Positions 11,438-63,911 of a stretch of 64,000 nt of DNA are shown in pieces; position 1 is the stretch's first letter, and every line of letters begins with the position of its first letter. This DNA is from Linderina pennispora (lineage: Eukaryota > Kickxellomycota > Kickxellomycetes > Kickxellales > Kickxellaceae), in the NCBI RefSeq assembly GCF_002104995.1, contig NW_024468249.1, positions 3,038,001 through 3,102,000 on the forward strand. The letters are read 5' to 3'. The position numbers and the translations under genes are program-made. Under the pieces are notes generated by a model. That model did not search any database, was not told where the DNA came from, and saw only the letters and a program-made list of their open reading frames with translations.

Positions 11438-12996
11438 TCAGTGCTTGTTGCGGTACATGTCCTTGCGGTGCGAGGGCAGCTCCTGGCGGTTGCGCACCAT
11501 CCAGGCGATTCCGCAGGCATTGCACAGCGTTTTTGGGCCATTCGGCCCTTGGCGCGGAATCGGGGTCCCGCTGCTGTCGCATCCACAGTGCTGGCACTCC
11601 CAGTTGCTTAAATCGACCCTTGTGTGCTGCCGTGGCGTTGATACCCGCGACGGCGTGCCCTGCTGTGATGTCGATGTGGCTGTTTGGATACGGATGGTCG
11701 AGTGCTGTGAGCGGCGGCCACTTGGCGAAGCCGTCCACGTGTGGTGCCAGCGCCGCATCGACTGCTGACGTCGACAAGGCCGCCTGTGCATAGTATGCTG
11801 GGTTGATGCTAGGTGCCAGAACTGTCGGTGCGACCCCTGGCTCGTGCGGTAGGGCTTCAGGCGGCAAAAAATTGAACGATCTGATGTGCCCGCGCTCTGA
11901 CCGACGCATGCGGCGGTAGCTGCGCTCCTTGTGCATCCACATGCGGTCGAGCTCCTCGGCCGTGAGAACCTCGACGCTGGGGCCCCACGCATTGGCCATG
12001 TCGGGAGGTCGGAATGCCGACTCAACTGGGTTCTGCCTAAGCCAGTGTGCGTCGCCTGCTTCAATAAGCTCCTTCTGCAGCCTCGCAATCTCCTCGCGCA
12101 CGCGGTGCGCCACTAGCGGCGGATACTCGCCAGCCCAGCCCCAAATCGCGGCACAGGCACTTGGCAAACTCCTCGGGCTTGGTGTCTAGCGGTTCGAGAA
12201 TGTCCCACTCGACGCGGTCCCGCAGCACATGGGAACCGATCTGGATCTCCAAGGTTGAGAACCACACGCAGCTCGATGGCCGACACATCAGCGGAGTCCA
12301 CAGCGACGTACTCGGCGACCTGCTGGCGGATCAGCTGGGCGATATGGACCTGTGCGCTGGCCTTGCCATCGGCAGGCAGCGCCAGGTCTGCGCAGTATAT
12401 GGCCGCAAACTGTTCAGGCGTGATAATGCGCTCCTTTGCGTTCCACACAAACACGTCATGCAGACGGAAATCGCCAACCTCCAGCTCGATCCGGATAGGA
12501 ACCAGCAGCTCGTCCTGTTGCGCCAGCCATTTTGCCTGGTCGTCCCGTAGATGCCAATGGGCCGTGCGACGCCGCGCACGCTTCTGCATTCGCGTCGTAT
12601 GCAGGACTGTACACCGATGCCGCTCATCGGCTCGGCCTCCTGCGACTTGCCGTCACGCGACTCGCTGTCGTTCTTTACCGACCCGCCATCGGTCTCAAAC
12701 ATCGATTCGGTGTCGTCCTCAACTCCGTACTCGTTCTCCGAGTCCGAGCTCCACTCGCGCAGGTTACGCCGGCTGCCGCGCGTCGACCGGGTGCGTGTCA
12801 GGCGGCCGCTGCTGGTAGTCATGCCGCCATGGACACTGCCGGCGCCATTTCCGGCGCCTGTGGTGTTCCCGGATGCTGAGAGGACGAGCATGGCAGAGCC
12901 ACCCTCTTTAAGACGCTCTACGTAGGCGCTGCCGAACAAGCCCATGCGCCGGAGCTGCTGTGCATTGGCAATCTGCGCGCTCTGTGCTGAATTCAT
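11438..12996 (-). CDS. SNF5: SNF5/SMARCB1-type chromatin-remodelling subunit with C-terminal GATA finger; five frame breaks
   Basis: Core subunit of SWI/SNF or RSC nucleosome remodellers. From the ATG at 12996 the N-terminus is Ser/Thr/Gly-rich and acidic. SNF5 repeat 1 ([18 protein letters not shown].., ..[14 protein letters not shown]) is coded at about 12,330-12,510. Repeat 2 ([18 protein letters not shown].., ..[15 protein letters not shown]) is at 12,130-12,250. A GATA-type finger (CQHCGC..LCNACG, Cys-X2-Cys then Cys-X2-Cys) is coded at about 11,500-11,600, an arrangement known in fungal SNF5. The coding runs across five breaks at about 12611, 12572, 12252, 12129 and 11618. Each is cured by ignoring one base, giving 517 residues. 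At 12252 the break sits inside repeat 2 (VVLN/LEIQIG). Whether these are consensus errors is treated in the findings. Divergent from GCN1. Confidence 0.85.
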
Positions 12997-13668
12997 TGTC
13001 CACGCTGTGTGATATGTGTGGCCGGATGCGGAGTGAGTGAGTGAGTGAGTGAGAGACTGTATGTTGGAAGCGCTGGGAAGAACTCGAATTCTACAGACTA
13101 AAGGAAGGCAAAAAACAATGCGAATTTCGCCAGTGTCTACGCGAACAAGGCCACTATTTTTCCATCGCGGCTCGCCGACTTCCAGCATTCCGCGAGCCGA
13201 GCTGGGTTCCGGTTTTTTTTTCTGGCCGCAGGCTGTGGCCGCAGGCAGATTGCATGTGTGCAAAATTTGGACTGGGGGTGTGCACATTTTTTCGCGTGCC
13301 AACCCCTGCAACCCGGGCAGCGCTTGTAGCCCCGACTCTCTCCTCTCCATACTTCTCCTTGCCTCGCTAGACACACAGAGCATTGAATATTTCTGATAAA
13401 GGTACATAGCACAGGGTCGGCGTCTGGCACCGGCGGGCGCAATCGGGCGGGCGCAATCGGGCGGCCAACGGAATGCAACAATTGATTCAGCCTTCCTTCT
13501 CCCAAACTTAGGAGCAACTCTGACATTTCCAAGAAGCGACACAGACCGTGGTTCCGTTAGCAACCAGCTCTAGAGAAAACCAAAACTACCAATAGCGATC
13601 AGACTACTGCTTGGCGTCTATCACTATCTCAAGTCTTTCGTCGAGACCGTTTATTACCAACTTTTGCA
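12997..13668. other. divergent promoter between SNF5 and GCN1
   Basis: 672 bp between two head-to-head starts. It contains a GAGT microsatellite in the SNF5 5' flank. No TATA box was evident close to either start. Confidence 0.7.
13031..13050. repeat. GAGT tetranucleotide microsatellite
   Basis: Five perfect GAGT units just upstream of the SNF5 start codon (in the SNF5 5' UTR or promoter). Confidence 0.95.
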
Positions 13669-16600
13669 ATGAGCGAAGCCGTGGCAGCAGAGGGCGAGTT
13701 TGCGTGGGGTCCGTACACAGAGCGCCTGAACGAGCTGGTGACAGCATCGCGTGTCAACGACCGGACGCGCCCTGTTTACCGCCGATCTCATGCCACAGAT
13801 CGCCGCGCACCCGCTCAGCGACAAGGAGCTGGTGGGGCTGGTGCGCACGCTCACACTGACGGTCTCTCGCTACGTCGACCGCGAGTCGCGCAGCCTCGTG
13901 CTGGCAGCGCTCCGGGAGCTCAGCGTCAAAAAGGCCAGCGTGTTTGTAGAGGTCATTGTCGGCGTGCTTGGGCCGATCGTGGCCTCGGCGCAGCCCAAGA
14001 CCAGCGACTCGCCTGACATGGTGGGCGCGACACCGGCGGCCAAATTCGTGCTGCTGACGTGGATCAACCTGGCGCTGCCAGTTCCGGTCACGCAGCTGAA
14101 GAAGGATCCGGCCGAGCTGGAGAAGAACACGGCGTGGGTGAAGCTGGTGGAGATGGCGGCGCTTCCTGATCTGGGGCACTTCGCCGTCCAGCGCCAGCAT
14201 CAAGGACCAGAAGATCAACTCGGTATCGAATAGCGCACATCACGATGTCTGGCGCACGCTGCGCTCATGCCCAGTCCTGACAGCGCCGATGCTGAGCATC
14301 TTAACGCGCCCAGCAAGCGGCAGCGAGGCAGGTGTGCTGATCGGTAACATTGTCGGGACAGCGATCCGTCCTGGCGGACAAGCCCGGCAAGAGTGGCGAT
14401 GGCGGTGCGGCGCTGAAGCAGGTTGAGCAGTTCAAAGACACGATCGTTTCGTACATTCGACAAGGTGCTGATCAGTGCAAAGGCACCAGTTTCGTATGCC
14501 AGCGTAGCGGATCTGGGCGACTTCTTGCGGCGGTTCGTTGCAGCGGACTTCGACAAGCTGTTCAAGCCGTCGATTACCAAGATGCTGCTGCGGTCACCGG
14601 AAGCTGTGCTGCCGACGTGCTACTGGCTGCTGAAGTGTCTGAGCAACGATGTTGATCTGGCCGCAGTATACATTGACATGTTTGCTGACCAGATCGCCAG
14701 CAACCTGCTCAAGAGCTCAAAGGACAAGGTGCGCGAGACCGCTGCCCTGCTGTTTGAGTCGCTGGCCAGCACACCGCGCTCGATCGAGGATGCCACCAAG
14801 GCGGCCGAGATTGCCACCAAGCCGCTGACTGCCGGCCGCTACACGCAGGCAGACCACCGCGTAGGTGTTCTACAATCTGCTGGGCAGTGTGCGCGCCGGG
14901 CCTGGCAACGGGTGGGCGTCGTCGGTGGCGATCTTGCCTGCTCTGCTGAAGATGACAGCCAAGGAGACGCAGGAGGCGCCTGTCAACGCAGTACTCAGCG
15001 CTATTGGCAGCCATGTCAGCGTTGTAATCGAGTATCTGCGCACGGCCGAGGCTGGTGCTGACGGTGCTGCGCAGTGTGAAGAGGCGCTGAAGGCGTTCTC
15101 GGACGCAGCCAAGAAGGGCCTGGCGCTTCCGGACAAGTCGGCGCTGGTGCGGCAGGCGTGGGCGGCCAATGCGATCGGTGAACCCCTGTGGTCAGCAGTC
15201 GCGCAGCTTGGCGGGATCGACCCACCTGTGGTTTGCGTCGTCAGTCCACCCGCTGGTGCAGGCGCTGGCCGCAGTCGCTGTGAAGGCCGCAGCAAACCCG
15301 CTCACTGCTGGCACAACCCTGGAAGCCCATGTCGGAGTAGCGCTGGCCCTGCATTCGGCTGAGCCCATTCCCAATGCCAATGCCAACGACCTCATTGGAC
15401 CTCGTCACTGGGTCCGAAAAGTCGCTCCTGCTGTGGGACAAGGTGTACCACAAGGCTGCCAGCCCACGCGAGCTGACGTGGGTGCTGCGTGCAGCCGAGA
15501 TGCTGTTCAACAATGGCTGCAGCGACCCGCGTCTGGCTGGTCTGATTACCTGGTCTCTGTGCCGCTTCCCAGAGCCCACGCTGGCGACTACTCGGGGAGC
15601 CCTGCAGGTTGTCCAGGCAATGAGCACCAGCGATGCTGCCAGGCTGTGGGAGCTGGTAGAGCCAAGCTTTGTGGCTGAAATGGCCAAGTCGCTGGAGCTG
15701 GAGCGCATCAGGTACAAATGGACGGGGATTCTGGCGGCAGTCGCATCAGGAATCAACGCCGAGGAAGTCTCGCAGGAGAAGAAGAGCGACGTGCTGGTAT
15801 CCATGGCCTTGGCGGCGCACCACCCGGCAGTTCTGAAGGAGTCGGGCCGCTCGAGCTTCTGGATTGAGACCATCCTGCGCGCGCGCGTGGACCCAGGTGA
15901 GCTGTGCCACGGGATTCCTGGCGGCACTGCGGCAGGCGATCGAGCTGGCCATGCAGGGCTCGTCTGAGGGCGGCCAGGCACAATTTGACTCGGCAGTCAA
16001 CCTGATCAAGGATCTGGTGTTCATCGGCAGCGACAGCGTTGCGCTGCGGCTGCTCGAGTTTGCCCGCGAGAGCATCAATCCTGACAGCCTGAGCCTGGTT
16101 TCGCAGCACGACATTGCAGTGTGGCGGACTCCCAAGGACCAGCTGCTGGAGGACCCAGTTGTCGAGAAGGAGCGTGCCAAGCAGGGAGGCAAGAACAAGA
16201 AGGACGACTGGGAGGCTCAGCTGCGGGAGGAGCTGGCGCGCAAGCACAACAAGGTGCGCAAGCTGACCAGCGAAGAGCAGGAGATGGTTGACAAGCAGTG
16301 GGCCAAGGAGAATGCAGCGCGTGCCAAGGTTGAGGCGGCCTACCATGGACTGACCTGCGGTCTGGCGACCGTCAGGGCTGTGGTCCGCGGCAGCTTGAGT
16401 GTGGCCAGCACGTGCATGCTGGAGCTGGTGCGTATTGTTGTCGAGCGGGCTGTCATTGGCGGTGGTTCCGTCAGCGAGGCTCTGGCAGGCGAGGCGATCC
16501 GCGACACGCTGCTGGACATGAGCAAGGCCTGCCGACGGGCTTGAGGAGGCGCTGCGCACGCCAATTGCCATGGGTCTGCTGCGGGCGCGCGGCTTTGCCA

Positions 16601-19600
16601 GCGTGATCCCCCAGGGCTGGCTGTACGAGTCCATGGAGGACCTGGCCACGCGTCTGTACTACAGCCTGCGCGTCAGCTGCGAGCACCAGCCACTGCCTTC
16701 GGCCGGGTTCAACTTTTTGTTCCCGTTCATGCAGGCGACCTCTGAGCAAGGCGGCTGGGGCCGCAAGATCAAGCGTGGGGTTGAGGAGCACGACGAGTAT
16801 GCGCAGATGGACCACGCAGCCGAGCAGCTGACGATGGTAGTGGCCATTCTGGGCTTCCACGCGCACTTTGGCAATGTCTCCGAGATGCCGCGCAAGGAGA
16901 TGATCGAGCTGCTGGTGCTTCTGATGGCCACGCAGCCGATGCTGCTGGCCCAGTGCCGCACCAGCTTGGTCAAGATGGCCGAGGAGATGGAGGGAACCGA
17001 CACTCCGCTGGAGCGCGACGCGCTGCTCGATGGCCTGCTGCGTCCTGACAGTGTTGTGCGCAGCGCGTGCCTGGCGGCGCTTGACTTTATTGACCTGACG
17101 GATCTGGAGTTCTCGGCCAAGCTGTGGGTCAACACTGGCGCGTCCGAAGACGATGCTGTTGCGCTGGTTGAAAATGCCGAGCTGGCCCGCACGCTGTGGG
17201 CTGAAAACGGCATGGAGGTGCTGCCGGAGCTCATTGACGGCATTGTGCCGTACCTGAACCACGATGCGGCGGAGATCCGCACCTGCGCTGCCAAGTCCAT
17301 TGGCTATGCAGTGCAGGAGCGCCTGGCGCTGGCCGAGGACGAGGAGGAGACCGACATCACCGCTGACGGCGTCAATGCCGAGATTGACCAGCTGCTGGTG
17401 GCCCTGCAGGATGCGTACCGCAAGTGGTACATTTCGCTGGACCCCGAGTACGACGCCTTTTGGCATTGTCGTGCCGGGCACGCAGAACCGCCAGGACATT
17501 GCCGCCACTCGTGTCGCGGTGGCTGACTCGTTCCTGCATCTGGCTCCGCTGCTGCAGACGGCGGGTCCAGGTCAAGAGCCTGATCGCCTTCCTGGTCCAC
17601 GACCGTGCGCTGGGCGAGCGGGCTGAGTCTGTGCGTTCGCACATGCTCTCTGCCGGTGCCCAGGCAGTGGCTGCCCACGGCTCGCAGTGGTCGGGCGAGC
17701 TCCTGCCGATTCTCGAAAAGTTCCTATCCGAGCCCGACGAGGGCACTGAGTCGTACGACTACATCCGCGAGGGCGTGGTTGTGCTGCTGGGTCGGCTGGC
17801 GCAGCATCTGCCGAACGGCGAGGAGGCACGCGTGGCCGATGCGGTCGACCAGCTGGTGGCCACTCTGGCGACGCCCTCTGAGGCTGTGCAGAGCGCAGTC
17901 AGCGAGTGCCTTCCGCCTCTGGCCAAGCGCCTGTCTGAGGACAAGTTTGGCAGCGTCATTGACGGTATTGTCGACGTGCTGCTGAACGGCGAGCGGTACT
18001 CGCAGCGGCGTGGTGCGGCCTACGGTCTGTCTGGTTTGATCAAGGGCCGCGGACTGGCGGCGCTGAAGAAGTATGCAATCATCGACAAGCTGCGCGAGGC
18101 ATGCAACAACACCAAGTCGTTCCAGCAGCGCCAGGGCTCGCTGTTTGCATTTGAGACGCTGTCAGGCAAGATGGGCCGGCTGTTTGAGCCGTACATTATC
18201 CAGTTCCTGCCGCTGCTCCTGTCGCGCTTCAGCGACGCCAATGCCGATGTGCGTGAGGCCGCCAGCGACGCGGCGCGTGTGATCATGGCCAACATCTCTG
18301 GGCACGGTGTCAAGCTGATTCTGCCGTCTGCTCTGACGGGTCTCAGCGACGACCAGTGGCGCACCAAGAAGGGCAGTGTCGAGGTGCTCGGCTCCATGGC
18401 GTACTGTGCTCCCAAGCAGCTGTCGGTGTCGCTGCCCACCATTGTGCCGCGCATTATCGAGGTCCTGACTGACACACACCACCAGGTGGCGGCGGCTGCG
18501 CGCGAGGCGCTGCTGCGGTTCGGCGAGGTCATCCATAACCCTGAGATCCAGGAGCTGGTTCCAGTTCTGCTGGGCGCCCTTGACGACCCGGCCAACAAGA
18601 CCGACTCGGCGCTGCGTACGCTGCTGTACACGGCCTTTATCCACTACATCGATGCGCCGTCGCTGGCGCTGGTGGTGCCGATTATCCAGCGTGGTATGCG
18701 CGCACGCATGGCGTCGACCAAGCGTAATGCGTCGCAGATCATGGGCTCGATGGCGACGCTGACGGATCCCAAGGACCTGGTACCCTATCTTGATTCGCTG
18801 GTGCCTCTGCTGCGCGGTGTGCTTGTGGACCCTGTTCCTGAAACGCGTGCCACGTCGGCCAAGGCCCTGGGCTCGCTGGTGCAGAAGCTGGGCGAAACGC
18901 AGTTCCCGAGCCTGGTGGCTGACCTAGTGAAGGTGCTCAAGAGCGACGCGTCGGGTGTCGATCGGGCTGGAGCTGCGCAGGGTCTGTCTGAGGTCCTGTC
19001 GGGTATCGGCATGGAGCGTCTCGAGGGCCTGGTTCCCGAGATCCTGGCCAACTGCAACTCGTCGCGCGTGCCTGTGCGCGAGGGCTTCATGATGCTGCTG
19101 ATCTACCTTCCGGTGACGTTCGGCGAGGAGTTCCAGAAGTTCCTGCCGCAGGTGATCCCGCCTGTTCTGTCCGGCTTGGCCGACGAGAACGAGCAGGTCA
19201 GAGACGCTGCTCTGCGCGCCGGCCGCATCCTGGTCATGTCGTATTCCAAGACGGCTGTCGACCAGCTGCTGCCCGAGCTGCTGGCTGGCGTGCAGCACGA
19301 GTCGTGGCGCATCCGCCACTCGTCGATCGAGCTGCTCGGAGAGTTCCTGTTCCGGGTCGCCGGTATCAGCGGCAAGCAGGCCGAGAAGGAGCGCGAGGAG
19401 GCGCGTGCTCAGTTCTTTGCTGTCCAGGAAGGCGGCGAGGATGGCGAGGATGGCGAGGGTGCTGGCGAAGGCGGCGAGGGTGCTGGTGAGGCTGGCGAGG
19501 GCTCTGACGAGGACGAGGACGACGAGCTGGCCATCTCGAGCAACCTGCGCAACGTGCTGAACGAGAACCTGGGAGCCGAGCGCTGCAACTCTGTGCTGGC

Positions 19601-22231
19601 GTCGCTGTATGTGGCCCGCAGTGACGTGTCGGCGATGGTGCGCCAGGCGGCGTTCTCAGTGTGGAAGAGCATTGTCAGCCATACGCCACGCACGCTGCGC
19701 GAGTGCCTACCCAAGATCATGGACATTGTGCTGAGCGGTCTGGCGGCAGACGAGTACGAGCGCCGCACAACCGCTGCTCGCACACTCGGCGACCTTGTGC
19801 GCAAGCTGGGCGAGTCGATCATGGCCGAGATTGTGCCGATTCTGGAGAAGGCCCTGTCCGACCAGACTTCTGGAGCAGCCGGTGGCGTGCGCCACGGAGT
19901 GTTTATCGGTCTGTCGGAGATCCTGCAGTCAGCAGGCAAGTCATACATCGACGTGTATGCTGACGCGATGATCCCGCTGGTCCGCCGCGGCCTGTGCGAC
20001 GAGGACGCCATGGTGCGCGAGGCGGCAGCCTCAGCCTTTGACAGCCTGCAGCAGGCTGTTGGCCCGAGCATCATTGATTCGGTGGTCCCACCGCTGCTCA
20101 CAGCGCTGACTGTGCAGCAGGGCGGCGAGGGAGCCAAGGACGCAATTCTCCCGGGCATCAATGCCGAGCACGCGCTCGAAGCTCTGCGCGAGCTGATGGC
20201 AGTGCGTGCCAACGTGGTGTTCCCGGTCCTGATCCCGACACTGACAGCCAAGCCTGTGACAGCGTTCCACGCCCAGGCCCTGGCATCTCTGATCCAGGTG
20301 TCTGGCAGCAGCTTGAGCAGGCGGCTGCCGCAGATCCTGGTGTCGCTGTTCGAGTCGCTGCCAGTACACCACGCCAATGGCGATGCCGAGGCGGAGAGTG
20401 CCCTGCGCGACACTGTGCGTGTGGTGGTGACTGCGGCAGCGCAGGACGAGGACACGCTCGAGGCCCTGATGATGCTGTTCCATGAGTCGGTCAAGATCAA
20501 CGAGAGCACCAAGCTCAGCGAGGCGCCGGAGGTCGTGTCGCGTGTGGCCGAGGCGTGCTTTGCGCTGGCCGCCATGTGCCAGGCGTTCGGGCCAGGCTCT
20601 GCAGCGCGCGGGCGCACTGTGCTTGGTACACATGTGATCGACTGGCTGCGGGTGCTTATTGACCTGCTGGCAGGTGCCGTCGGATCTGGTGGTCAAGGCG
20701 GCCTGGACAGCGCTCGACGCGCTGGTCAAGACTGTGCCCAAGGAGGACTTTGACGGCTATGTCGGCCCGGTGAGCCGCTCAGTGAAGCGGGCTACCGACT
20801 CGCTGCCTGTGGGCACCACGACGCTGCCTGGCTTCGATCTGCCCAAGGGCGTGGGCCCGATCCTGCCCATCTACGCCCAGGGTCTGCTGGTTGGCTCGGC
20901 CGACTCCAAGGAGCGCGCTGTGCGTGGCATGGCGCGTCTTGTGCGGTTCACGAGCCCTGCAGCCCTGCGGCCGTTCGCGAACTGGCATTACGGGTCCGCT
21001 GATTCGTATTGTCGGAGACCGTCACCCAGCCAACGTCAAGGCAGCGATTCTCAGCACGCTTGGCCTGCTGCTGACGCAGATTCCGGCGCTGATGCGCCCG
21101 TTCCTGCCGCAGCTGCAGCGCACGTTTGTGCGTGGCCTGCACCGAGCAGGACGATGCAGTCCGCCAGCGTGCTGCCATGGCTCTGTCCAGCCTTGATTCC
21201 GCTGCAGCCAGCGTCTTGATCCGCTGGTCAGTGAGCTGACGGCCGGAATCCGCCAGGCTGAGGCTCTTGGCATGCGCCTAGCCTATGATGAAGGCCATTC
21301 GGGCCGTGCTGCGTGCTCCCAACGCGAAGTCGCTCTCTGCCAACAGCGTGCAGGGCATCGAAGACGTCGTTGTTGACAAGGCCAATGGCGATGGTGGACG
21401 CCGTCGAGGGCAGCGCCGATTTCCGCTGGCAGGCGCTCAAGAGCGAATGCTTCGGCGCCCTGTGCGCTATGGTGCCTGCCGAGGATGCGTCTCCGCCTTG
21501 TCGAGCAGTACGCGCTGGCCACCTCTGACGACCCGTCAGAGACCCAGGCGCTGAAGCTGCGGGCTATGGCTGCCGCTCTGGCTGCCGCTCCGCAGGTCTT
21601 TGCCCAGTCGGAGGCCCTGCAGAGCAGCATTGTTGCTGGCGTCGAGCAGGCGCTTGTGCCCAGCACCTCGGTGCACCAGCCGATGGCTGCTCTTCAGGCC
21701 ATCGGTGTGGCGAAGTCTGCTTTGCTGCAAAGGGAGGTAGCTACCCCTGGCAGCGCCATTGTCGAGCCGCTGGTGTCTGCGCTGGTGCGTGCTGTCGACC
21801 CTGCAACCATGTCGGCCTTTGACTCGGAGACGCAGCAGGCTGCGCTGGCTGCGCTCAAGTCGCTGGCCAAGCGCCGCTACGCAGACCTCATCGAGAGTGT
21901 GCGTGACCAGGTCGTCATGGCCGCCATGGCACATGTGCGCGACCGCAACATCCAGGTCAAGCTGGCCGCCGAGCGCTGCGCTCTGTACGCCCTGCGCATG
22001 GCGCGCGTGCCGGCCGAGGACTTTGACGGATCCGACGAAGCCCTCAAGGCGTATGTCGAGAACATGGGCGGCGCCAGCTCCGAGAAGGGCAAGCAGGTGC
22101 TGGACTACCAGCGGCGCGTGCTGAACAAGCTGGCCGAGAGCACCCGCGAGCTCGACTACCTCAGCGACGACGACGAGGACCGGGCTGCCAACCACAATGA
22201 CGAGGACGACGATGAGGACAATGCCGAGTAA
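13669..22231 (+). CDS. GCN1: GCN1, ribosome-bound activator of the Gcn2 kinase; 18 frame breaks
   Basis: HEAT-repeat giant that with Gcn20 links stalled ribosomes to Gcn2 in amino-acid starvation. The uninterrupted centre (about 17571-20673, over 1,000 residues) carries the eEF3-like and Gcn2-binding region. It has family-diagnostic strings such as [47 protein letters not shown] and [14 protein letters not shown]. An acidic Gly/Glu/Asp insert is coded at 19425-19530. The N-terminal part ([11 protein letters not shown]) and the C-terminal part ([20 protein letters not shown]) also match GCN1 but lie in changing frames. Breaks are near 13748, 14175, 14363, 14458, 14863, 15226, 15395, 15895, 16537, 17460, 17570, 20673, 20985, 21143, 21212 (two bases), 21282, 21388 and 21484. 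Dropping 19 bases in all gives exactly 2,848 codons, close to the usual 2,670 residues. The protein ends in an acidic tail. Family certain; integrity uncertain. Confidence 0.93.
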
Positions 22232-27530: not shown

Positions 27531-27822
27531 ACATCTTTGCGGCGCCTACATAGCTTCCCAAGTCGAGGTTTTGATAGCTTGCCCCCATGGCGCTTGTACA
27601 CCTTGACAATATAATTGACAGTATTGCGAACAATTCGTGGTTACAAAGCGTGGCGTGCAGTATTGGCAGAGAAAGCAACATGTTAAAAAAACATATGGTC
27701 TGCCCAAAACCACGTGCAATCGGATATATGGTATATACATGGCCACAACGGAGTGGGGGGTTTAGCGACTGCCCCTTGATACTGTCTTCCACTGTTTACC
27801 TTATACCCACACAACCACAGCC

Positions 27823-28704: not shown

Positions 28705-28739
28705 CGCTTTTCATTTTGTGTGTACCGAAGAATGCTATT

Positions 28740-52302: not shown

Positions 52303-53045
52303 ATGCATTTTTTGTTTGTACGAGATTGCCAACCAGGATGTGCGCTCGAAAGCAGACAATATAGTGCAAGCATGCACAAATGTATGGATGGGTGCTCTAT
52401 TTGGGCTTGGACAATTCGCGCCTTTGTCCACAAATGAGATAATCGGCTTTTCTTGCATTCTGGCATTGTTTGCTGCGAGCTAAAGTGTGAAATGTGCCCG
52501 ACACTATATCTCTGGTGTTCTTGTGGGGAGAGGTTTTGCAGGCTAGCCTGCGTGCTATTTTTGAACCCGGAAACTGCCAGGCTGTGGTAAACGAGAACCG
52601 CGCTCCCCGTGGTTTCCTTGAAATTCACAGTGCACGGCTTTAGGGGAATAGCGGAATCACTCCACCTGGGGATGCCTGTTGCACAGAGACCGTGGTACGT
52701 GTCTCGTTCTTGCTTCTCGGATTGTCCCTGCAATTTTTAGAGCACCAGTATGGCCGTGCGGGCGTTTGGACGCAGTGCCAGAAAAGACTATTTTTTCTCT
52801 AAAGGAGAGTGGATTTTTTGCGAAGCGCGCGCCGGGTGATCATGGATTTACCCAAGCGACATAAGAACAGAGGGGGAGAAAATATACGCCAGGCCATGAC
52901 AAATTGCCCACCTTTTGCTTTTTTTCTCCCCTTTTTATTCCCTTTTATTTCAAAGACACCTTTTATTTAGCCCTATACCCTTTTATTCCTTTTCTTTCAC
53001 CAAACCCCCGTACCTGTACATATATACCTTATATAAAAAAGCAAA
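52303..53045. other. intergenic
   Basis: About 740 bp between THI20 and the Byr4-like gene, ending in a long T/C-rich leader (52,910-53,040). No gene supported. Confidence 0.6.
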
Positions 53046-54230
53046 ATGGACCTGAAGAACGACCTGTCGCGGTGGATGGAGTCGCCAGAGGACGATGACG
53101 GTGACGACTACGGGCTGATTATTGACCACTCACTCACAGAAGCCGCGCTGCCGCCAATGCCCACGCTTCCGGTCGACATGCCACGGCTCAGAACACCGCC
53201 GCCGGCTGCCGCACAGCTGGGGCACTTGCCGCCGTCAGCGCAGCTTGGGCTGATGCCGCCCTCGACGCAGCTCAGTCTAATGCCGCCTGCAGTGTCACCG
53301 CGGAGCATACTCCCGCAGAACCTGCCGCTGATACAGCCGGCAGCGAAAAAGCCGCAGACGCTGCTGGACAAGTACGTGGAAAACGACGACGAAGACTACA
53401 ATGACCTGGTGCTGCCGAACGAAGCCGACCAGCTGGACTCGCACCTGGCTGCACTGAAGACGCCGCGTAGGCGGATCCCCTCATGGCCACGCAACTCGGA
53501 ATCGCTGTTATCCGGCGCTACCGCCGTCTCCCCGTCGAAGCCTGCCAGCGAAAAGGCTGCGCACTCGCGGCCCATGTCTTTGGGCCTGGGCATAAGCACG
53601 CCCGAAAATGCGCACCGGGTGCCGTCGGCCAGGCAGCGCGTGCTAGAGTGGCAGCTCAAGGGGAAGCAGGAGGCGAGCCACAAGCCGCGCCGGCCGATGC
53701 TTATCCGCAACATGTCGCGGGGCAACGAGCCGGTGGTCATCGGGTGCATGCGGTACGACCCGGTGGGCCGCATGTGGGTGGGCAATGACGAGGAGGGCAC
53801 GCGGATTTCCAGCGCCATTGCTGAGTCTGATCGGCAGCTGCGGTCACGTGGGCTGATCCGCAACGAGCCGCTGGACTCGCGCAAGCTCGCGCGCAAAATC
53901 TCGGCCCGCTCTGGCGGCAGCCCACGCAGTGACGAGGGCGAGGAGCCCGTGGACCCGAAGCCCAGGCCCGTGTTTGACCCGCAGAATCTGCGCTGGATTG
54001 ATCCAAACGAGCACAAAGGCGACCCGCTGCACGACCCGTTCTGGAACATCCCCGACCTGCCGGTTGACCCGGCCCGTGCTGACAAGATGCGGTCGCGCAG
54101 CAGATCCGAGGCCGTCTCCATGGCCAACGTCTTTGCACTGACCGACGAGCAGCGCCAGACCTTTGCTCACGAGAGCAAAGAGTACGGGGCGTTTGCACGG
54201 CGGTGGTTCCCCAAGACCACCGCAGCCTAA
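53046..54230 (+). CDS. Byr4/Bfa1-like component of the septation/mitotic-exit GAP
   Basis: Byr4 (fission yeast) or Bfa1 (budding yeast) pairs with Cdc16/Bub2 to restrain the GTPase Spg1/Tem1. 394 residues, largely disordered and rich in Pro, Ser and Arg. Family-like blocks are an acidic DKYVENDDEDYNDLVLP near residue 110 and two repeats of the 'phi-x-a-D-P-x-x-x-x-W' type: MRYDPVGRMWVG near 233 and VFDPQNLRWIDPNEHKG near 312. The second is followed by DPFWNIPDLP, the counterpart of the DPF.dI.DL core of Bfa1. The C-terminus has a GAFARRWFP motif. The protein is shorter than the yeast relatives (about 570-670). Confidence 0.75.
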   Translation: MDLKNDLSRWMESPEDDDGDDYGLIIDHSLTEAALPPMPTLPVDMPRLRTPPPAAAQLGHLPPSAQLGLMPPSTQLSLMPPAVSPRSILPQNLPLIQPAAKKPQTLLDKYVENDDEDYNDLVLPNEADQLDSHLAALKTPRRRIPSWPRNSESLLSGATAVSPSKPASEKAAHSRPMSLGLGISTPENAHRVPSARQRVLEWQLKGKQEASHKPRRPMLIRNMSRGNEPVVIGCMRYDPVGRMWVGNDEEGTRISSAIAESDRQLRSRGLIRNEPLDSRKLARKISARSGGSPRSDEGEEPVDPKPRPVFDPQNLRWIDPNEHKGDPLHDPFWNIPDLPVDPARADKMRSRSRSEAVSMANVFALTDEQRQTFAHESKEYGAFARRWFPKTTAA

Positions 54231-54313
54231 CCACTATACATTATCCCCCACTAAGCGTTCTACATGCAACCTGTCTATTGTTCTCACTAAAAAGCCTGAT
54301 AAAAACCGTCTCT

Positions 54314-54889
54314 TCAGCTGGTCTTTGCCTTGAGCAAATCAACAAACTTGCTCTTGGACATTTCTGCCACCCGCTCGGTGCGGCGGCTCGGAATGGTCTC
54401 GATCTGGTCCAGCTCCGTCTGCTGCGCCTTGACCACATTGAACAGCTTCACCACGCCCCGGGTCGCCACCTTCCGCAGCTTCCGCTCGTAGTCAAACCCC
54501 TCCATTGTCGGAATCACCCGGTCCTTGCTCAGCAGCATCCGCTTCTCGTGCACCAGCGCCTTGCGCGCACGGTAGCTCAGCAGCTCATCCTTGATCTGCT
54601 GCTCGCGTGTGCGGTCCTTGGCCATGATTGGCGCCGCAGAGGGCGTCGTCTGGCCCAGGATCGATGTGAGGATAGTCGAGAACTCTTGCGCGTCAGCATC
54701 GTGCTTCTTGCTCTTCTTGCTCTCCTTTGTCATCTTGTCGTACTCTGAGTCTGACCCAGAGTCGCTGCCACTGGTGCCCACCTCGCTATCCGACGCCGAG
54801 CTCGCCTCTGCGACTTCTGTGGCCTTTTGGACCTTTGCTGTCAGCTTGCCCTTGGCCGTGCCGCTGCGAGTACGCTTTGTGGGTGCCAT
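54314..54889 (-). CDS. RRP15: RRP15-like ribosome biogenesis protein
   Basis: Nucleolar factor for 60S maturation (27S pre-rRNA processing in yeast). 191 residues from the ATG at 54889 ([15 protein letters not shown]), chosen because the frame upstream is a hydrophobic non-conserved stretch. It has a basic, then Ser/Asp-rich head. The family core follows: [11 protein letters not shown] near 95, the Arg/Lys-rich helix with [14 protein letters not shown], and the hallmark [20 protein letters not shown] near 145 with QQTELDQIE after it. It is convergent with the Byr4-like gene (83 bp apart). Confidence 0.88.
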
Positions 54890-55205
54890 GCCTTTTTTAT
54901 GTGTATTAGAGGTGAATGAGGACGCGAATGAGAGAAAAAAAAAAAAAAGAAAGAGGGGAGCTGGCAAAAGAAACGCCAAAGAAAAAAGCATTTTATACTC
55001 TGATCCCACTAATCACCCGATCAGGCGAAAATGTTGGCTGAAAAACGACTGCCTTGCGCTGGACCGCCAGGCACTCTTTTGCGTCCAAAAAACCACACTT
55101 TTTCGTTCTTTACGCGTGTTTACAAGGTACAATTCTCTCTTCTCAATCCGGCCCCTCAATTCAATCACATACGCAGGACAGCTAACTCTTCGGATCTTTT
55201 TTAGA
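54890..55205. other. divergent promoter between RRP15 and RPB10
   Basis: 316 bp between the starts of two growth-related genes. It includes an A-run of about 15 at 54940-54955, the poly(dA:dT) type of element common upstream of ribosome-biogenesis genes. Confidence 0.65.
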
Positions 55206-55424
55206 ATGATTATCCCGGTGCGCTGCTTTACTTGCGGAAAGGTCGTTGGCAACAAGTGGGAAACCTACCTGGAGCTCCTGCAGAAGGACTACACAGACAG
55301 CGAGGCCCTCGATGCCCTGGGTCTGAAGCGCTACTGCTGCCGCCGTATGGTGCTGACCCACGTCGACCTGATCGAGAAGCTGCTGCAGTACAACCCGCTC
55401 GAGAAGAGACGCACACTCGGGTGA
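55206..55424 (+). CDS. RPB10: RNA polymerase subunit RPABC5 (Rpb10)
   Basis: Small zinc subunit shared by RNA polymerases I, II and III. 72 residues from the ATG at 55206. The invariant start [19 protein letters not shown] has the first Cys pair (CFTC), and RYCCRRM supplies the second. [12 protein letters not shown] closes the protein. The length is normal for the family. It stands head-to-head with RRP15. Confidence 0.98.
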
Positions 55425-55504
55425 ACAAAACTAGACCAGAAAATCTGGGTGCCTTGATTTCTAGCTGTAGTAAATATATTCTGTGTTTTCCACCCCCTTG
55501 GCTC

Positions 55505-55891
55505 TTAAAAGAACATGCCGCCAGAGCTACTAGGACCCTGCTGGCTGGTGGGCTCTGGCTTGCTGGTAGCTGGTGCGACCGGCTCTGGTTCGGCTGGCTT
55601 CAGCTCCTTGATCTTGTCCTGCAAATCGTCGATTTTGACGTAGGCGTCAGCCGTGTACGCATCGAATTCCTGCTTTTGCGTCAGCCGAACGTATGCAACC
55701 AGGGCCAGTGCTGACCAGAGTGTGTAGTCGCGGAAGAACTCGCGGATCGTGGACCGCTTCCATGTAAAGTGCTTGCGCCAGTTATTGTAGCTGCGCCATT
55801 GCTGCTTGGCCGTCTCCTCGTAGCCGGCCTTGGAGGCATAGTGTCTGGCTGCGGTCGTAGAGAACTGTCGGGCAAGCACGGCGCGGTTCAT
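55505..55891 (-). CDS. small mitochondrial inner-membrane-type protein, unrecognised
   Basis: 128 residues. The first 20 (MNRAVLARQFSTTAARHYAS) form a typical mitochondrial presequence with Arg and Ser and no acids. A mature part with a Trp-rich amphipathic stretch (WRSYNNWRKHFTWKR) precedes one membrane segment (LWSALALVAYVRL). A helical charged region (VKIDDLQDKIKELKPA) and a Pro/Ser-rich end follow. This layout suits a small subunit or assembly factor of a respiratory complex, but I cannot name it. It is convergent with RPB10, 80 bp apart. Confidence 0.65.
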   Translation of the reverse strand: MNRAVLARQFSTTAARHYASKAGYEETAKQQWRSYNNWRKHFTWKRSTIREFFRDYTLWSALALVAYVRLTQKQEFDAYTADAYVKIDDLQDKIKELKPAEPEPVAPATSKPEPTSQQGPSSSGGMFF

Positions 55892-56126
55892 TTTGTGGGC
55901 TGTGCCAATTGTAGAATGTGGAATTGTTCGCAGATAAAAAGATAAAAAAGAAGGGCTTGATTGACCCGTTCAGCCAATGCCTATTTCCGAACCTGCCAGG
56001 CATTGACGTGTTTATACGCTTAAAAACGAGCATGCGCTGCACTATTCAGAAAACCCGTAAACACCATCTTCTTTCGCTCCTCGCACTTTGCTTCATTATT
56101 TTGCGTTTTATATTATTGTGAAAACC

Positions 56127-58707
56127 ATGCCACGACGGTTGCAGGCTGGCACGTCGTTCCGCCTGCGCCTGGGTGACACCACCTCGCAGCCCAGCTACAA
56201 CTCGGTTGAACCATACATGGAAATAGCCGACGACAAGAATCCGGTCTGCGCGTATTTCGAAATAGTGACACTGCGAAGCCTGCTTCTGGAGCACGTCAGC
56301 GTCGTGCTGTCCTCGACACAGCTGCACTCGCCTGACGTGCAAATCAACCTCATAGCCCCGCTGTGGCAAGCCATCCGGGACAGATGCGGAGTATGGCGTC
56401 GCGGCGACATGCGGCATACGCAGGAAGCCATCACCTCAGAGACCCTCAGCGGACCTTTGGTCAGCGCCGCCATGCTGTACGCGGCATTGGCCAACCGCGA
56501 CTACTTTCTGGTACTGGCCAGCGCCGGACAGTCGCAGGCCGAGCAGCACCAGAGCCGCGCGGAGGTGGCAGAGACCATCGCCATCATGTGTGTCAAGGCG
56601 CTGCACAAGCTGGGCAAGCGGGATCTGGAAAACGCCCTGTGCACCAAGTTCTCGCCGATCGACCTGGACAGCATGCGCCTGGAGATGGCCAATGCAATGC
56701 ACAACTCGAATGCCACCGTCAGCGAATGGCAGCTGCCGAATCCTGTGCGCGGCGAGCAGCACATGTCGCTGATGTCAGCTGAGCACCGTGTGCGGGTTTA
56801 CCGGCTGGGCAGGGCCGGTGACGTCGTTGATGACAGTGGCTCCCATACGCCCACGCAGAGAACCTGGGGCTCGGGTATCATGGGCGGCTGGTCGACTCCT
56901 GCCACGGAGCTCGCGCAGATCTACTTGGGGAGCAGGTCGCGGCTGGTGGTGGAGCGGGCACTGGAAGTGGCTATTCGCAGCGAAGCCAAAAGGTTCACTG
57001 CACAAAAGGTCGTTGGCGATGTCGTCCAGCTGCTGTGGGACGGCACATTGCACTGGAAGGGGTACCAGTGTGTCTGTATAGCGCAGCCATCAGCGAACAC
57101 CCCAGCTGAGCCTGGCCCACCCCCGCGCAGACTGTCCGATGCAGTCTTGACGATTGCGCGCAGGGACAGCAGCAGGAGCAATGCGTCGGTGGGTCTGGCC
57201 GACGATATCCACGATATGCTGGACCCACTGCTACCTCAGGTCTCCCGGCCACCACACAGAACATGGCAGGCTAGGCTGGAAAAGCAGCTGGCGTCGATAC
57301 TGAGCCCGCTGCGGATCCCCATGTTTGAAAACATCCTGACCATGGTTCACGCGTTTTTCTTTTTGGTGCTGTACTCGACCGTATCAATGCGCCGCCAGCC
57401 CGCCCTGAGCGCCGAAGAGCTGGTCCTGCACATCTGCGTGCTCGCCTATATTGCCGACGAAATCCGCCAGTGCATGGAGAACGGCATTGTGGTGTACATC
57501 AAGAGCGTGTGGAATGTTCTTGACATCACGATTTACTCGATTTTTTCTGCCTTCTTTATCCTGCGCATCCGCAGCTGGTACACGGGCTCCGATGACGACC
57601 TCGACAAGGCATATGATGTCCTGGCATTGAACGCCGCCATGATGTGGCCACGCCTGTTTGCTGTGCTCGACCAGTTTGAGTTCTGCGGCACCATCATTAT
57701 CCAGGTGCGCCGGATTATCGCTGGCACCAGTCTGTTTTTCGCCCTGCTCCTAGTCTTCATCATCGGCTTCTTCCAGACCTTCTATGCGCTGGGCAGCCGC
57801 CACAACAAGCTGGCAGCCTCCGAGATCTCGGGTCTGATGGCGCGGATCTTCTTTGGCTCTGCAGTCATTGGCTGGGACCGATACGACCTTGTTTGGCCCG
57901 CACGTCGGTCTGTTCGCCATGGGCACGTATATCGCCGTGTCCATGCTCATCCTGTACAATATCCTTATCGGTGTCATCAACCAGTGCATGGTTGAGATCA
58001 CCGAGAACTCGTCCCAGGAGTTCCGGTTCCTGTACACCATGCGCGTCACCGAATACGTCAGCGCCAAGCAGACGTACCCGTGTGTGCCTCCCCTCAATCT
58101 TTTGCAGATTGGCGTCTTCTGGCCGCTGCGCAAGACAGCCATCTCCACACGCACTTTTGCGCTGCTTCGCTCCACCACCCTGCTTATTGCCTACGCCCCA
58201 CACCTGGTCCTCTACTGCCTCTACAAAACCGTCGGCCGCTGGTGGCGCGCAAAGTCTGGCATGCACCGCAAAGCCCTGCGTGCCGAGTGCTTCCTGGCCG
58301 AGCGCGAACTGGCCCTTATTAAAATCGACAAGTCCGATATCGACGAATTCGCCTTTGCCAACGACACCGACACCTAGCGACGATTCCGCCACCAATACCC
58401 GGAAATTATCGGGTGCAGTAAAGCAGGATAGGCGCCGTGCTGTCTCGCCGTCGAACCCAGCGTCTCCCAAGAGCCTCGGGAAGCTGTCGGATGAGCGGCA
58501 TGGCAGGGGCTGGGCAAGCTTCTTGAGCGCTTGGAGCTCGCAGAGGAAGGAGCGGTCCGCCGGTGAGCCCCGGGTGGCCCACAGGCTGCCCAAGCCACGG
58601 CTGATACCGAACGCAGGCTGGCGGAGCTGGATGCGCGTATGGCGGATATAAACAGCCAGCTCGCCACAATCACACGTCTGCTAAAGCCCGTGATTCAGGA
58701 CGATTGA
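56127..58707 (+). CDS. TRPY/Yvc1-like vacuolar cation channel; five frame breaks in the 3' third
   Basis: Calcium-permeable TRP channel of the fungal vacuole (family knowledge). From the ATG at 56127 the long cytosolic N-terminus contains HKLGKRDLENALCTKFSPIDLDSMRLE and, further on, QLLWDGTLHWKGYQ, as in Yvc1. Membrane helices follow (FENILTMVHAFFFLVLYS; VWNVLDITIYSIFSAFFIL; LLVFIIGFFQTFYALGS) and then the pore and last helix (MGTYIAVSMLILYNILIGVINQ). The frame changes at 57891 between WDRYDL and FGPHVGLF, inside the pore region. Further breaks near 58375, 58506 (two bases), 58563 and 58582 (two bases) lead to a coiled-coil end (ERRLAELDARMADINSQL) and a TGA at 58707. Removing 7 bases gives 857 residues. 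The unrepaired frame after the pore could also end at 58375. Confidence 0.8.
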
Positions 58708-60459: not shown

Positions 60460-61039
60460 CTAGGCGAGAGCAAACTCCTGAGTTGAGTAGCCATTGTCAT
60501 GGCCAAACCCAACAATATTATAGTCGCCAATGAGGTTCTTGAAGTGGCCAGGGCTCTTAACCCATCCCATCCATGACAGCTGTGACATCCGGGTAGTCCT
60601 GGGCGACATTCTCGGCAACTCCGCTCCAGTCGATACCGGACTGTGAGCAGCGATCTCCCAGAGACCCAGCCGAATCGTCGTGCGTCATCTGGCGAACCGA
60701 GCTCTGGTAGTTCGAGTGTCTCTGCGCCATGTCATTGAGGCGCTCGTCAATCTTGAGTGGCGACCGACCGTTCTCGGCACGCACAGCGTTGACTTGCCGA
60801 AGCATCTCCTCGTGCCAGTTACTGCTCGAGAAGGATGTCGATGGACCACTGTTGTAGCCAGTGTCAGCGTATGAGGGAGCAGAGGTGTTTCCGTGCTTGC
60901 TCGGACCAGAGGGGCCGTTCGACTTGTACTCTTCGTAGTGACGCCCCGCCAAGCTGTCAACAGCTGCAATGGGTGCGGCACCGGTCAGGGACCCCAGGAG
61001 GGCAGAAGCAAGAATGAGGGTCGAGGTAATGCTAACCAT
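60460..61039 (-). CDS. secreted CAP-domain (SCP/PR-1) protein; one frame break
   Basis: CAP-superfamily secreted protein; fungal members bind sterols or lipids (family knowledge). Signal peptide at 1-20 (VSITSTLILASALLGSLTGA). A Ser/Gly/Pro-rich spacer precedes the CAP domain from about 80: MLRQVNAVRAENGRSPLKID, DMAQRHSNYQ and MTHDD (His/Glu-type cleft residue), then WSGVAENVAQDYPD. The frame then stops after VMDGMG. Dropping one base of the GGG at about 60566-60570 gives DGWVKSPGHFKNLIG.. and NIVGFGHDNGYS, the conserved W..SPGH..N and strand motifs, with a TAG at 60460 and 192 residues in all. A TATAAAA box lies about 200 bp upstream on the minus strand (61238-61244). Confidence 0.85.
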
Positions 61040-62460
61040 GGTGGGTTGTGTAACTAAAAATATGAGAATATGAAGCGTTGGTGTTGGAACTTTAGATAAC
61101 GCCGATCAACGGAGTTGGCAAAAACAACGAGAGGAGAGTGGCCAAAAGCAGGAGGAAAGAGGGGATGGGGTGTATGGAATTTTGAGCTTTAGGAAGACTA
61201 AAGGACCTTGACCATCTGCCGAGGTCGTTCTGATGTCTTTTATATGCAGCCAGGTGCACTGAGAGAAAGAAGTGGCGATGAAGGGGGAGCTTACGGCCCT
61301 TCTGGCAATGAATAAAAGGGGGCGTCGGAAATTGTTTTCCACATTTCACAATTGTTTCCCTATTTATTGTCGTGGTCCTGCTTGCGGTCGTTTTGGCCTG
61401 CTACATGAGATTCCATATACAAACCGCGGCCATTAGCACAGATAATGGCTCCCTACAAATGAGGCTGGCATGTCCATTGTCAGGCTCTTGTCATGCCGAA
61501 AGGGGCAGTCTGGCCGATGCATTCGTTTGTCCGCTGGCTGTGACCACAACGCAGTGGAGCCTTCGGGCACAGTTCGCTATAGTGCGCATTGTATATCCCC
61601 GGCATATGTTCCAGATTGGGTACTGTGACAACAGCTACCAGTTGGGAAGTGCTGTCGACAAAGCTGCTTTCCGCGTTGTGCCGAATCAATATATGATGCC
61701 TCCATATGGCCATAGGCCAAGCGAATGCACTGCAGTGTGCAGTCGAATTCACCTAGAGCGTCAAAGGAAAGGCTATCGGACAAAGCAGCCTTCACAAAAC
61801 ATAACGCACGCTTCAGCTCGAAGCACCTTAGCAAAAGTAACGCAAACATGCACGCCCCTCTCACCCTATGTAACTACCACCATAGATCGATACAGGCAAT
61901 TTGAGCTTTTCCCTAATGGGCTGTACTGGAGCTACCAACCGTAATTATTATCTATGCTCCCTACAGGGCATACAGCCAGCATGCAGAACTAGCGCACATG
62001 TCTTCGATCCACTTTGAAAACGTGGCCCTTGGGATGTCGGAGATAAACTGGCTAAACAGACAACCAGTGGACGAAGAGGCAGACAAAGGCCGAAAAATAG
62101 CGAGTTTGTTTTTGGGGAGGACGAGGATTTCTTTGAGAGCGGATCGTTGGTAAATTGTGACGATCAGTGCTGTTGTAGCAGAGGCGGAAACAAATCGGAT
62201 AGTCATTGAAGTCCAAGCATGCTGCATCTGGATGCACAGCTATATTGCACTGATTTTCAGGAGTGTACCTTTTGGATAGCCGGTCCCTGAATAAACCCCA
62301 CCCCAGAGGAAAAGTGAAAGACAGCAGGCCAGTCAAGTAGGTGCAAGAGGCAAAGAGCGATATATAAACACGGCTAGTTTCACGCTCATCAAGTGTTCTA
62401 CCAGCGCTTTCCTCATCTTCTTCCTACTCCCACTCTGGCTTTTAAAGAAAATCCATAGCC
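61040..62460. other. divergent intergenic of 1.4 kb
   Basis: Between the CAP gene and the acyltransferase. A 190-codon plus-strand frame at 61372-61944 has no motif, signal or codon bias I can support. TATA boxes for both flanking genes lie at its ends. Confidence 0.5.
62361..62367 (+). promoter_or_regulatory. TATA box of the acyltransferase gene
   Basis: TATATAA, 94-100 bp before the ATG at 62461. Confidence 0.55.
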
Positions 62461-63911
62461 ATGGAGCCGCCCACGTATACTGGCAAGCCACAGAGCATCA
62501 AGTTGACGGCGTTTGATGCCCTGGTGTCGATTCTCAATATCCAGCAAGTTTACTTTTACGAAAACAAAGACCGCTCGCCTGATTTTATGCCAGCGGACAC
62601 CCTTCATACAGCATTCAACAAGACAATCTCGCAGTTCCCACCCCTGCTTGGTCACCTCCGCCAGCAGCCTGACAACAGCCTGTCGATTATCATTGACAAG
62701 GACAGCCTCAACCTGCCCGAGTATCGCGAATCCACATCGACTGTACATTACAACGATATCAAAGCGTGCGGTTTCGACTATCGCGCCTGGCCATCCGACC
62801 TAATGACTGTCGGTGAGGTAGCAGCACCCAACGGCGACGGACAGATAAAAATGGCACATGGTGCATGTTGCGCGGCTACATGAGAACAGCGGTGTTGCTG
62901 TATTCCTCAGTCTGTCCCATGCCGCAGGCGATGGGGCCGGTTTCCACATGTTCGCAAACCGTTGGGTGGAGGAGGCCAAGGTACTTGCCAATGGTAGTGT
63001 AGCAAGTGACAAGCAGTTCACCTATGACCGTGAACTGATCCAAAAGTTTTTGCCCAAGGATCGCAAACAGCTTAATGAGGCCAGCGCTGAGTCATTTGAG
63101 TTCCGATCGGCCTATGGGAACAGGGTTGGCATGGCTGTCACCAGCCACACGTAACGGTCTATTCAGCAGGGCTATCGGCGCTGCACCTTGGCAGGGAACG
63201 CTGTATCGCGTTGATACTGAAAAATTGGGAGTGCTGCGTGAAGAACTCAACCGCTATGTCCCTGAGGGCGTGCAGTTGACCAAGAACGATGTGATTTCGG
63301 CACTGATTGCCAAGACAGTAGCCCAGTCTGTAAAAGCAACCAAAGTAGGCAGGCTGCAGGTCCTTTCTAATATCGGTAGCTGGATTGCAGGGAAGCGTGA
63401 ATTCCAGCGGCTCATGATCCCATGCGATACGCGCCCGCGCCTTGGAATGGGCGAGATCAACTATTCAGGTCAATGCGCAGTTCTCATCGGCCGTGCATAC
63501 CCCGCTGCATCTAGTGGAGTCACAAACCACGCTCAAATCGCTAGCTGAGCTTGCTGTCGAGGTGCGCAAGAGTGTAGGCGCGGTAGATGCCGAAACCGCC
63601 GCTACAGAGCACGACCTGATGACATCCAAGGCAAACTGCTACATGAACAACGTTATCATGACTCCAGTCGTTCAAAAGCTCGGTTGCGGTCACGAACCAC
63701 TCCCGGTTTCACTCCCTATGAAATGGACTTTGGGCATGGCGTACCTGACTTTGCTACAGTACGTCCTGTGAGCAATGCTGACTCAACAACCATCCTACCA
63801 GACCGCCCACCAAGTAAAGCATGGCTTGTAAGCATGACCAACACAATAGAGGTACTTGCGGAAATCAAAAAGAACGAATTCTGGTGCAAGTATGCGGACT
63901 TTGTTTACTAG
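62461..63911 (+). CDS. HXXXD-type (BAHD/TRI101-like) acyltransferase; four frame breaks
   Basis: Family that moves an acyl group from acyl-CoA to an alcohol or amine of a secondary metabolite. N-terminus MEPPTYTGKPQSIKLTAFDAL. The catalytic motif is LSHAAGDGAGF (His-x-x-x-Asp) near residue 150, and the second family motif DFGHGVPDFATVRPV (usually DFGWG) is near residue 415. Between and around them the frame changes at about 62854, 63144, 63467 and somewhere within 63661-63703. The first three are cured by dropping one base. The last needs two dropped or one added, and its exact place is unclear. The corrected total is 481 residues, normal for the family. A TATA box 94-100 bp upstream suggests it is or was expressed. 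Confidence 0.75.

What the first reader, a model, noticed from the sequence alone, without database searches (positions are those of the whole stretch)
11438..63911. About 34 one-sided frame breaks confined to six genes
Six genes read correctly only if extra bases are ignored: GCN1 (18 sites), SNF5 (5), TRPY channel (5), acyltransferase (4), ZPR1 (1), CAP (1). About 30 sites need one base dropped and 4 need two; none clearly needs the reverse. In each gene the repaired length is an exact multiple of three. Another 23 genes (about 26 kb coding) are unbroken, and a 3.1-kb stretch inside GCN1 is clean. Random errors at the observed rate should have hit those. Explanations in falling order of likelihood: insertion-type consensus error in poorly covered stretches; scars left by intron loss (a single G or an AG would fit nearly all sites, several in an AG|G|T setting); or true +1 ribosomal frameshifting at sense codons.
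Basis: partly seen in the sequence, partly recalled or inferred. Interest (0 to 1): 0.8.

Follow-up and report, generated by a model that had tools for sequence, protein, structure and literature searches.

The report
Doubled-allele errors in fungal assembly
The apparent run of extra bases in these fungal genes is almost certainly an assembly artefact, most likely places where two differing gene copies were merged and both letters were written, so it is ordinary biology but a useful warning about this reference genome.

Summary
The frame breaks are real in the sequence but almost certainly not in the organism. The window lies in contig C1 of the Linderina pennispora assembly. Alignment allowing frame changes finds 33 breaks, in GCN1 (19), SNF5/sfh1 (5), TRPY (4) and the acyltransferase (5). 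With the closest reference for each site, all 33 are one extra base. ZPR1 adds one; CAP adds one, only partly checked. Second copies in the same assembly differ at 22 of 23 testable sites: at 18 by one base, at 4 where C207 is itself out of frame. The copies carry different errors of their own. Proteins from another L. pennispora record are intact across 17 sites. The clusters sit where alternate-haplotype contigs end. At 23 of 33 sites (15 of 17 with a same-species reference) the break reads as two synonymous codons differing by a transition, mostly a third base written twice; random insertion gives 22-25%. That fits a haplotype-merging error reported for early FALCON (PMC5632298). Recoding and intron scars are rejected where a clean second copy exists. 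Low coverage remains a rival for some sites; no reads were available.

The parts
11441..12996 (-). SNF5/sfh1 chromatin-remodelling subunit (SNF5 + GATA domains); 5 frame breaks at about 11735, 12133, 12253, 12591, 12606
   Evidence: Pfam SNF5 in three frames; L. macrospora P0157 aligns gap-free with 5 x +1; C144 lacks one base at 5 of 5 sites
13669..22228 (+). GCN1; 19 frame breaks (11 at 13762-17564, 8 at 20670-21490), clean 17568-20670
   Evidence: P0001-P0003 alignments; same-species P0180 gap-free with 8 x +1; second copies C144 and C207
11001..16901 (.). Stretch shared with the end of alternate contig C144: 9 mismatches, 19 C1 extras and 15 C1 losses of 1-2 nt in 5.9 kb
18751..23651 (.). 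Stretch shared with the start of alternate contig C207, near-identical; C207 itself lacks bases where GCN1 is intact in the window
23680..51100 (.). Diverged haplotype stretch (21.3 mismatches per kb against C207), few small indels
28807..30186 (-). ZPR1; single break at 28812 cuts the C-terminus; the C207 copy reads on to a longer end
50779..52302 (+). Thiamine-pathway kinase/TENA gene, intact here (507 aa) but with 7 single extra bases and one missing base in the C207 copy
51101..57204 (.). Stretch shared with the end of alternate contig C207: 9 mismatches, 17 C1 extras and 7 C1 losses of 1-2 nt in 6.1 kb
56127..58704 (+). TRPY/YVC1-like cation channel; 4 breaks at about 57885, 58372, 58544, 58581
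   Evidence: P0122 (L. pennispora EC988_003799) gap-free with 4 x +1; Pfam; no second DNA copy of 57800-58700 found
60463..61105 (-). CAP (cysteine-rich secretory) protein; one break near 60560
   Evidence: Pfam CAP cut at 79/117 and frame change; no homologue aligned; no allelic second copy found, only paralogues at 68-76% identity
62455..63908 (+). Transferase-family (PF02458) acyltransferase; 5 breaks at about 62854, 63110, 63468, 63661, 63704
   Evidence: P0159 (L. pennispora EC988_005862) gap-free with 5 x +1; Pfam; no second DNA copy of 62500-63500 found

Best explanation
The breaks are consensus errors of a PacBio/Falcon assembly of a fungus with two haplotypes about 2% apart. In the stretches between and at the ends of alternate contigs the two haplotypes were merged into contig C1. 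At some heterozygous sites the consensus kept both letters, one after the other, instead of choosing one. Many coding differences between haplotypes are expected to be synonymous third-position changes, so a break tends to read as a codon with its third base written twice. This always adds a base, which explains the one-sidedness. The genes are intact in the organism. Shown: the extra bases are missing from second copies in the same assembly and from same-species proteins of another record; the clusters sit at the ends of the alternate contigs; the codon and transition pattern. Inferred: that the assembler merged reads of both haplotypes there, and that each pair of letters is two real alleles.
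For: (1) C144 lacks a single base at 14 of 14 break sites at 11.7-16.5 kb; C207 differs at 7 of 8 at 20.7-21.5 kb (3 cleanly, 4 where it is itself out of frame) and at the ZPR1 site. (2) Same-species proteins from another record align gap-free except for +1 breaks: GCN1 8, TRPY 4, acyltransferase 5. (3) C144 ends at window 16901, C207 spans 18751-57204, C162 starts at 64318; 34 of 35 breaks fall in the stretches around these ends, bounds that I drew after seeing the data. (4) At 26 of 33 sites two or more different one-base omissions give the same peptide (null 0.48-0.50), and at 23 of 33 two of these differ by a transition (null 0.22-0.25; P 8e-9 to 7e-8); with a same-species reference 15 of 17 (P 1e-8 to 6e-8) (first run). 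Of the 22 sites with exactly two outcomes 19 differ by a transition; of 1398 differences between haplotypes 1149 (82%) are transitions. (5) C207 carries 7 single extras in a gene that is intact in the window. [quoted passage not shown] PMC6757388 (passages read) lists L. pennispora ATCC12442 among PacBio assemblies with over 20% Falcon associate bases, likely diploid.
Against: No reads were available, so coverage and the two alleles are not seen directly. The alternate contigs' own extras do not show the pattern: 3 of 21 with a transition pair (14 of C144's 15 single extras and C207's 7 in the thiamine gene were tested), so a second, noise-like kind of error exists. The base-partner test is clear only in the C144 stretch (16 of 18, P about 0.002); it is 13 of 18, 7 of 13 and 18 of 27 elsewhere, not significant. 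C207's start mostly lacks bases rather than having extras. Seven of 33 sites have only one matching outcome. One site (21387) is shared by C207. The ZPR1 break lies inside a well-separated haplotype stretch. Why C1 and C144 are near-identical at 11-16.9 kb while only C1 carries these extras is not fully explained. The null used one clean stretch of GCN1 only.
Confidence: 0.8

Rival explanations
1. Insertion-type consensus error in poorly covered or unpolished stretches, without any role for heterozygous sites.
For: Errors cluster at contig ends, and the alternate contigs have their own noise-like errors: C144 15 single extras, 13 equal to a neighbour; C207 7 single extras in the thiamine gene. 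The extras at 52.0-57.2 kb show no allele pattern (7 of 13).
Against: Random insertion predicts 22-25% of sites with a synonymous transition pair; 23 of 33 were seen. Coverage was not measured.
Confidence: 0.17
2. True +1 recoding or four-base decoding at sense codons.
For: Breaks are one-sided and most read as one codon plus one base.
Against: Second copies of the same genes lack one base at 18 of 23 testable sites and differ less cleanly at 4 more; same-species proteins are intact across 17 sites, though a protein record alone cannot exclude recoding; similar extras occur between genes.
Confidence: 0.005
3. Scars of intron loss.
Against: At the 18 clean sites C144 or C207 has neither the extra base nor an intron; extra bases are of all four letters; no intron was found in GCN1.
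Confidence: 0.005
4. Real decay: one haplotype carries broken genes.
For: The assembly has two haplotypes about 2% apart.
Against: The genes include GCN1, SNF5/sfh1 and ZPR1, every break is an extra base, and no in-frame stop was met in the aligned frames of GCN1, SNF5, TRPY and the acyltransferase.
Confidence: 0.01

Closest known systems
Indels introduced by haplotype merging in early FALCON PacBio assemblies (Korlach et al. 2017, PMC5632298; passages read; author name recalled)
   Same: PacBio/Falcon assembly of a two-haplotype organism; indels at nucleotides that differ between haplotypes in merged stretches; gene models damaged
   Different: The passages read do not describe one-sided doubling of synonymous alleles; here that pattern is seen, in a fungus
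Gene-fragmenting indel errors in long-read assemblies (Kastor paper, PMC12007338; passages read)
   Same: Frame breaks from consensus indels found by comparison with relatives
   Different: The passages read concern bacterial assemblies and basecalling; here the codon pattern points to allele merging
Programmed +1 frameshifting (recalled, no call)
   Same: One base must be skipped to stay in frame
   Different: No shared site; second copies lack the extra base

Membership tests
Haplotype-merging consensus artefact (PacBio/Falcon) | Assembly contains alternate-haplotype contigs | tested here: met
   C144 and C207 run alongside C1 at 20.4 and 21.3 mismatches per kb, and the first 10 kb of C162 more divergently; PMC6757388 reports over 20% associate bases
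Haplotype-merging consensus artefact (PacBio/Falcon) | Extra bases sit at sites where haplotypes differ | tested here: inconclusive
   Indirect: synonymous transition pairs at 23 of 33 sites; both alleles were not seen in reads; base-partner test significant in 1 of 4 stretches
Haplotype-merging consensus artefact (PacBio/Falcon) | Errors lie outside stretches where the haplotypes are separated | tested here: met
   34 of 35 breaks lie around or between the ends of the alternate contigs; ZPR1 is the exception
Low-coverage consensus error | Low read depth at the sites | not testable with these tools
   No reads held
Programmed +1 frameshifting | Extra base present in all genomic copies of the site | tested here: not met
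   18 of 23 testable sites lack one base in the second copy, 4 differ less cleanly, 1 is shared
Programmed +1 frameshifting | A common slippery site or stimulator | tested here: inconclusive
   The listed four-base settings differ in codon and letter; no motif or structure search was run
Intron-loss scar | Copies without the scar keep an intron there | tested here: not met
   No intron-sized insertion in C144 or C207 at their testable sites

The most novel reading that the evidence does not exclude
At the sites with no second DNA copy (17452, 17564, TRPY, CAP, acyltransferase) and at the one shared site (21387), the extra bases are real and are read through as four-base codons with a doubled third base.
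Probability: 0.005. Interest if true: 0.95.

Novelty: not a real feature. Interest (0 to 1): 0.15.

Why it matters
As biology it does not matter: the genes are almost certainly intact. As a warning it does. The published proteins of this reference genome bridge the breaks with gaps, so TRPY loses a 31-residue segment (P0121 against P0122), and the GCN1 part at the end of C144 is listed as a separate uncharacterised protein (P0179). The pattern of a doubled, synonymous third base may help to find merged-haplotype errors in other two-haplotype Falcon assemblies; that wider use was not tested.

Tried and rejected
Mapping ambiguity at duplicated contig ends as the sole cause: rejected, because breaks also occur at 17452, 17564 and 57.9-63.7 kb; short-query searches of 17100-18200, 57800-58700, 60200-61200 and 62500-63500 found no allelic second copy. 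A long-query genome search (18,750 bases) missed even its own position, so its lack of a second copy was wrong; a short query found C144. The other long query found C207 but did not list its own position either. The allele pattern as the cause of the alternate contigs' own errors: not supported (3 of 21).

Papers. A search for 'programmed frameshifting' with 'Linderina' found 0. Four searches with Linderina pennispora or Linderina and genome terms listed PMC8298701, PMC11258239, PMC6757388, PMC7466969, PMC6784888 and PMC10386755; of these I read passages of PMC7466969, PMC6757388, PMC6784888 and PMC10386755 and saw the other two only in the listing. Three searches on assembly errors listed 12 of 48, 3 and 1 papers; of these I read passages of PMC5632298 and PMC12007338.
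Full report
What was given.

Where the window comes from. The window is G000:C1:3038001-3102000 of an assembly of 26,172,285 bases in 222 contigs. Protein searches place it in Linderina pennispora (Kickxellales): proteins named DL89DRAFT lie on a contig of 3,302,357 bases, the length of C1. That this is strain ATCC 12442 is recalled and fits PMC6757388, which names that strain's PacBio assembly (passages).

The breaks. I wrote a protein-to-DNA aligner that allows frame changes and introns. GCN1 (13669-22228) has 19 breaks and no intron; SNF5/sfh1 5; TRPY 4; the acyltransferase 5. Against same-species proteins of another record (P0180 GCN1 part, P0122 TRPY, P0159 acyltransferase) the window aligns without any gap except +1 breaks: 8, 4 and 5. 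L. macrospora SNF5 (P0157) gives 5 x +1, gap-free. The remaining 11 GCN1 sites rest on P0002 from Dipsacomyces, all +1, with a few codon gaps elsewhere; P0001 and P0003 and 2 of the 19 as -2, the same frame. ZPR1 has one break at 28812. CAP has one near 60560, seen only from frames and a cut Pfam match.

Second copies. The same assembly holds further contigs that run alongside C1. C144 ends at window 16901, C207 covers 18751-57204, and C162 starts at 64318. Away from their ends C144 and C207 differ from C1 by 20.4 and 21.3 mismatches per kb with few small indels (0.25 and 0.40 C1 extras per kb, 0.43 and 0.62 C1 losses); for C162 at 66.3-74 kb the figures are 38.0, 0.52 and 0.77. At the shared ends of C144 and C207 mismatches fall to 1.5-1.8 per kb and 1-2-base extras in C1 rise to 2.8-6.4 per kb; some of the latter are bases missing from C207. 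At the start of C162 mismatches stay at 19.7 per kb with 30 extras and no losses in 2 kb (all).

What the copies say. At 14 of 14 break sites in SNF5 and the first part of GCN1, C144 lacks one base. At the 8 sites at 20.67-21.49 kb, C207 lacks one base cleanly at 3, differs at 4 where it is itself out of frame, and shares the break at 21387. At ZPR1 C207 lacks one base and reads on to a longer end. The copies have their own, different errors: C144 has 15 single extras where the window lacks them; C207 lacks bases at 18.9-20.4 kb, where GCN1 is intact in the window; and C207 has 7 single extras and one missing base in a thiamine-pathway gene that is intact in the window. So the breaks belong to the consensus, not to the genes. 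This removes recoding and intron scars for 18 sites and makes them unlikely for 4 more. For TRPY and the acyltransferase only the protein evidence speaks; for 17452, 17564 and CAP only homologues or frames. Short-query searches found no allelic second copy there.

Not confined to genes. C1 also has extras between genes against its second copies: 13011-13457, 22250-22865, 52602-53034 and 64.3-66.3 kb, where coding status was not checked. Which copy is wrong there is not shown.

Why one-sided. At each of the 33 sites I asked how many different single-base omissions within a short piece give the same best peptide (recounted by script). At 26 of 33 there are two or more; random insertions into the clean GCN1 stretch give 0.48-0.50. 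At 23 of 33 two of these outcomes differ by a transition; random insertions give 0.22-0.25 (P 8e-9 to 7e-8). With only the 17 sites that have a same-species reference it is 15 of 17 (P 1e-8 to 6e-8). Of the 22 sites with exactly two outcomes, 19 differ by a transition; among 1398 differences between haplotypes 82% are transitions. In words: most breaks read as one codon with its third base written twice, as two synonymous alleles. Writing both alleles always adds a base.

Results against this. The alternate contigs' own extras do not show it (3 of 21; one of C144's 15 was outside the tested range). A simpler test, whether the extra base is the transition partner of a flanking base, is clear in the C144 stretch (16 of 18) but not at 20.6-23.1 kb (13 of 18), 52.0-57.2 kb (7 of 13) or 64.3-66.3 kb (18 of 27). 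C207's missing bases are a different error; six of six single ones could fall on a third codon position, which chance would give about 7% of the time by my hand reckoning. A second, noise-like class of error is therefore present, and low coverage may play a part.

Known kind. PMC5632298 (passages) reports that early FALCON merged less divergent haplotypes and introduced indels at nucleotides that differed between them, and that FALCON-Unzip phasing was used to prevent this. PMC6757388 (passages) gives L. pennispora more than 20% Falcon associate bases and 24.72% allelic gene models, likely diploid.

Consequence. The published protein models bridge the breaks: TRPY P0121 has 802 residues against 858 in P0122 and lacks, among others, a 31-residue segment; SNF5 P0158 and acyltransferase P0161 align only with short gaps or false introns.

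Verdict. Assembly artefact, confidence about 0.97; haplotype merging with both alleles written, about 0.8.

Noticed in passing
C1:3106000-3107200 (L019:4000-5200, about 68.0-69.2 kb in window coordinates): Part of a repeat with at least 40 copies at 94-98% identity across the assembly, probably a transposable element; not identified.
   Followed up: no
window 1-11000 and 23680-51100: About 2% divergence between C1 and the alternate contigs C144 and C207, consistent with a two-haplotype genome.
   Followed up: partly
window 56127-58704: The published TRPY model (P0121) lacks a 31-residue largely hydrophobic segment that the other L. pennispora protein (P0122) has, probably part of the pore region (inferred).
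   Followed up: partly
L017/L018 (end of C144): A protein annotated as uncharacterised, DL89DRAFT_100798 (P0179), on a contig of C144's length, is a second copy of part of GCN1.
   Followed up: yes
L003, C207:1-2300: The start of C207 mostly lacks bases rather than having extras, the opposite of C1.
   Followed up: partly
window 59509-60321: An ELO-family gene inside the second error cluster shows a near full-length Pfam match in one frame, 3-241 of 242.
   Followed up: no
window 53046-54230: A 394-aa ORF with no Pfam match; C207 lacks a G at 54071 inside it, and which copy is right was not settled.
   Followed up: no
window 60471-61043: Paralogues of the CAP region at 68-76% identity on contigs C197, C57, C1 and C112; not studied.
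   Followed up: no
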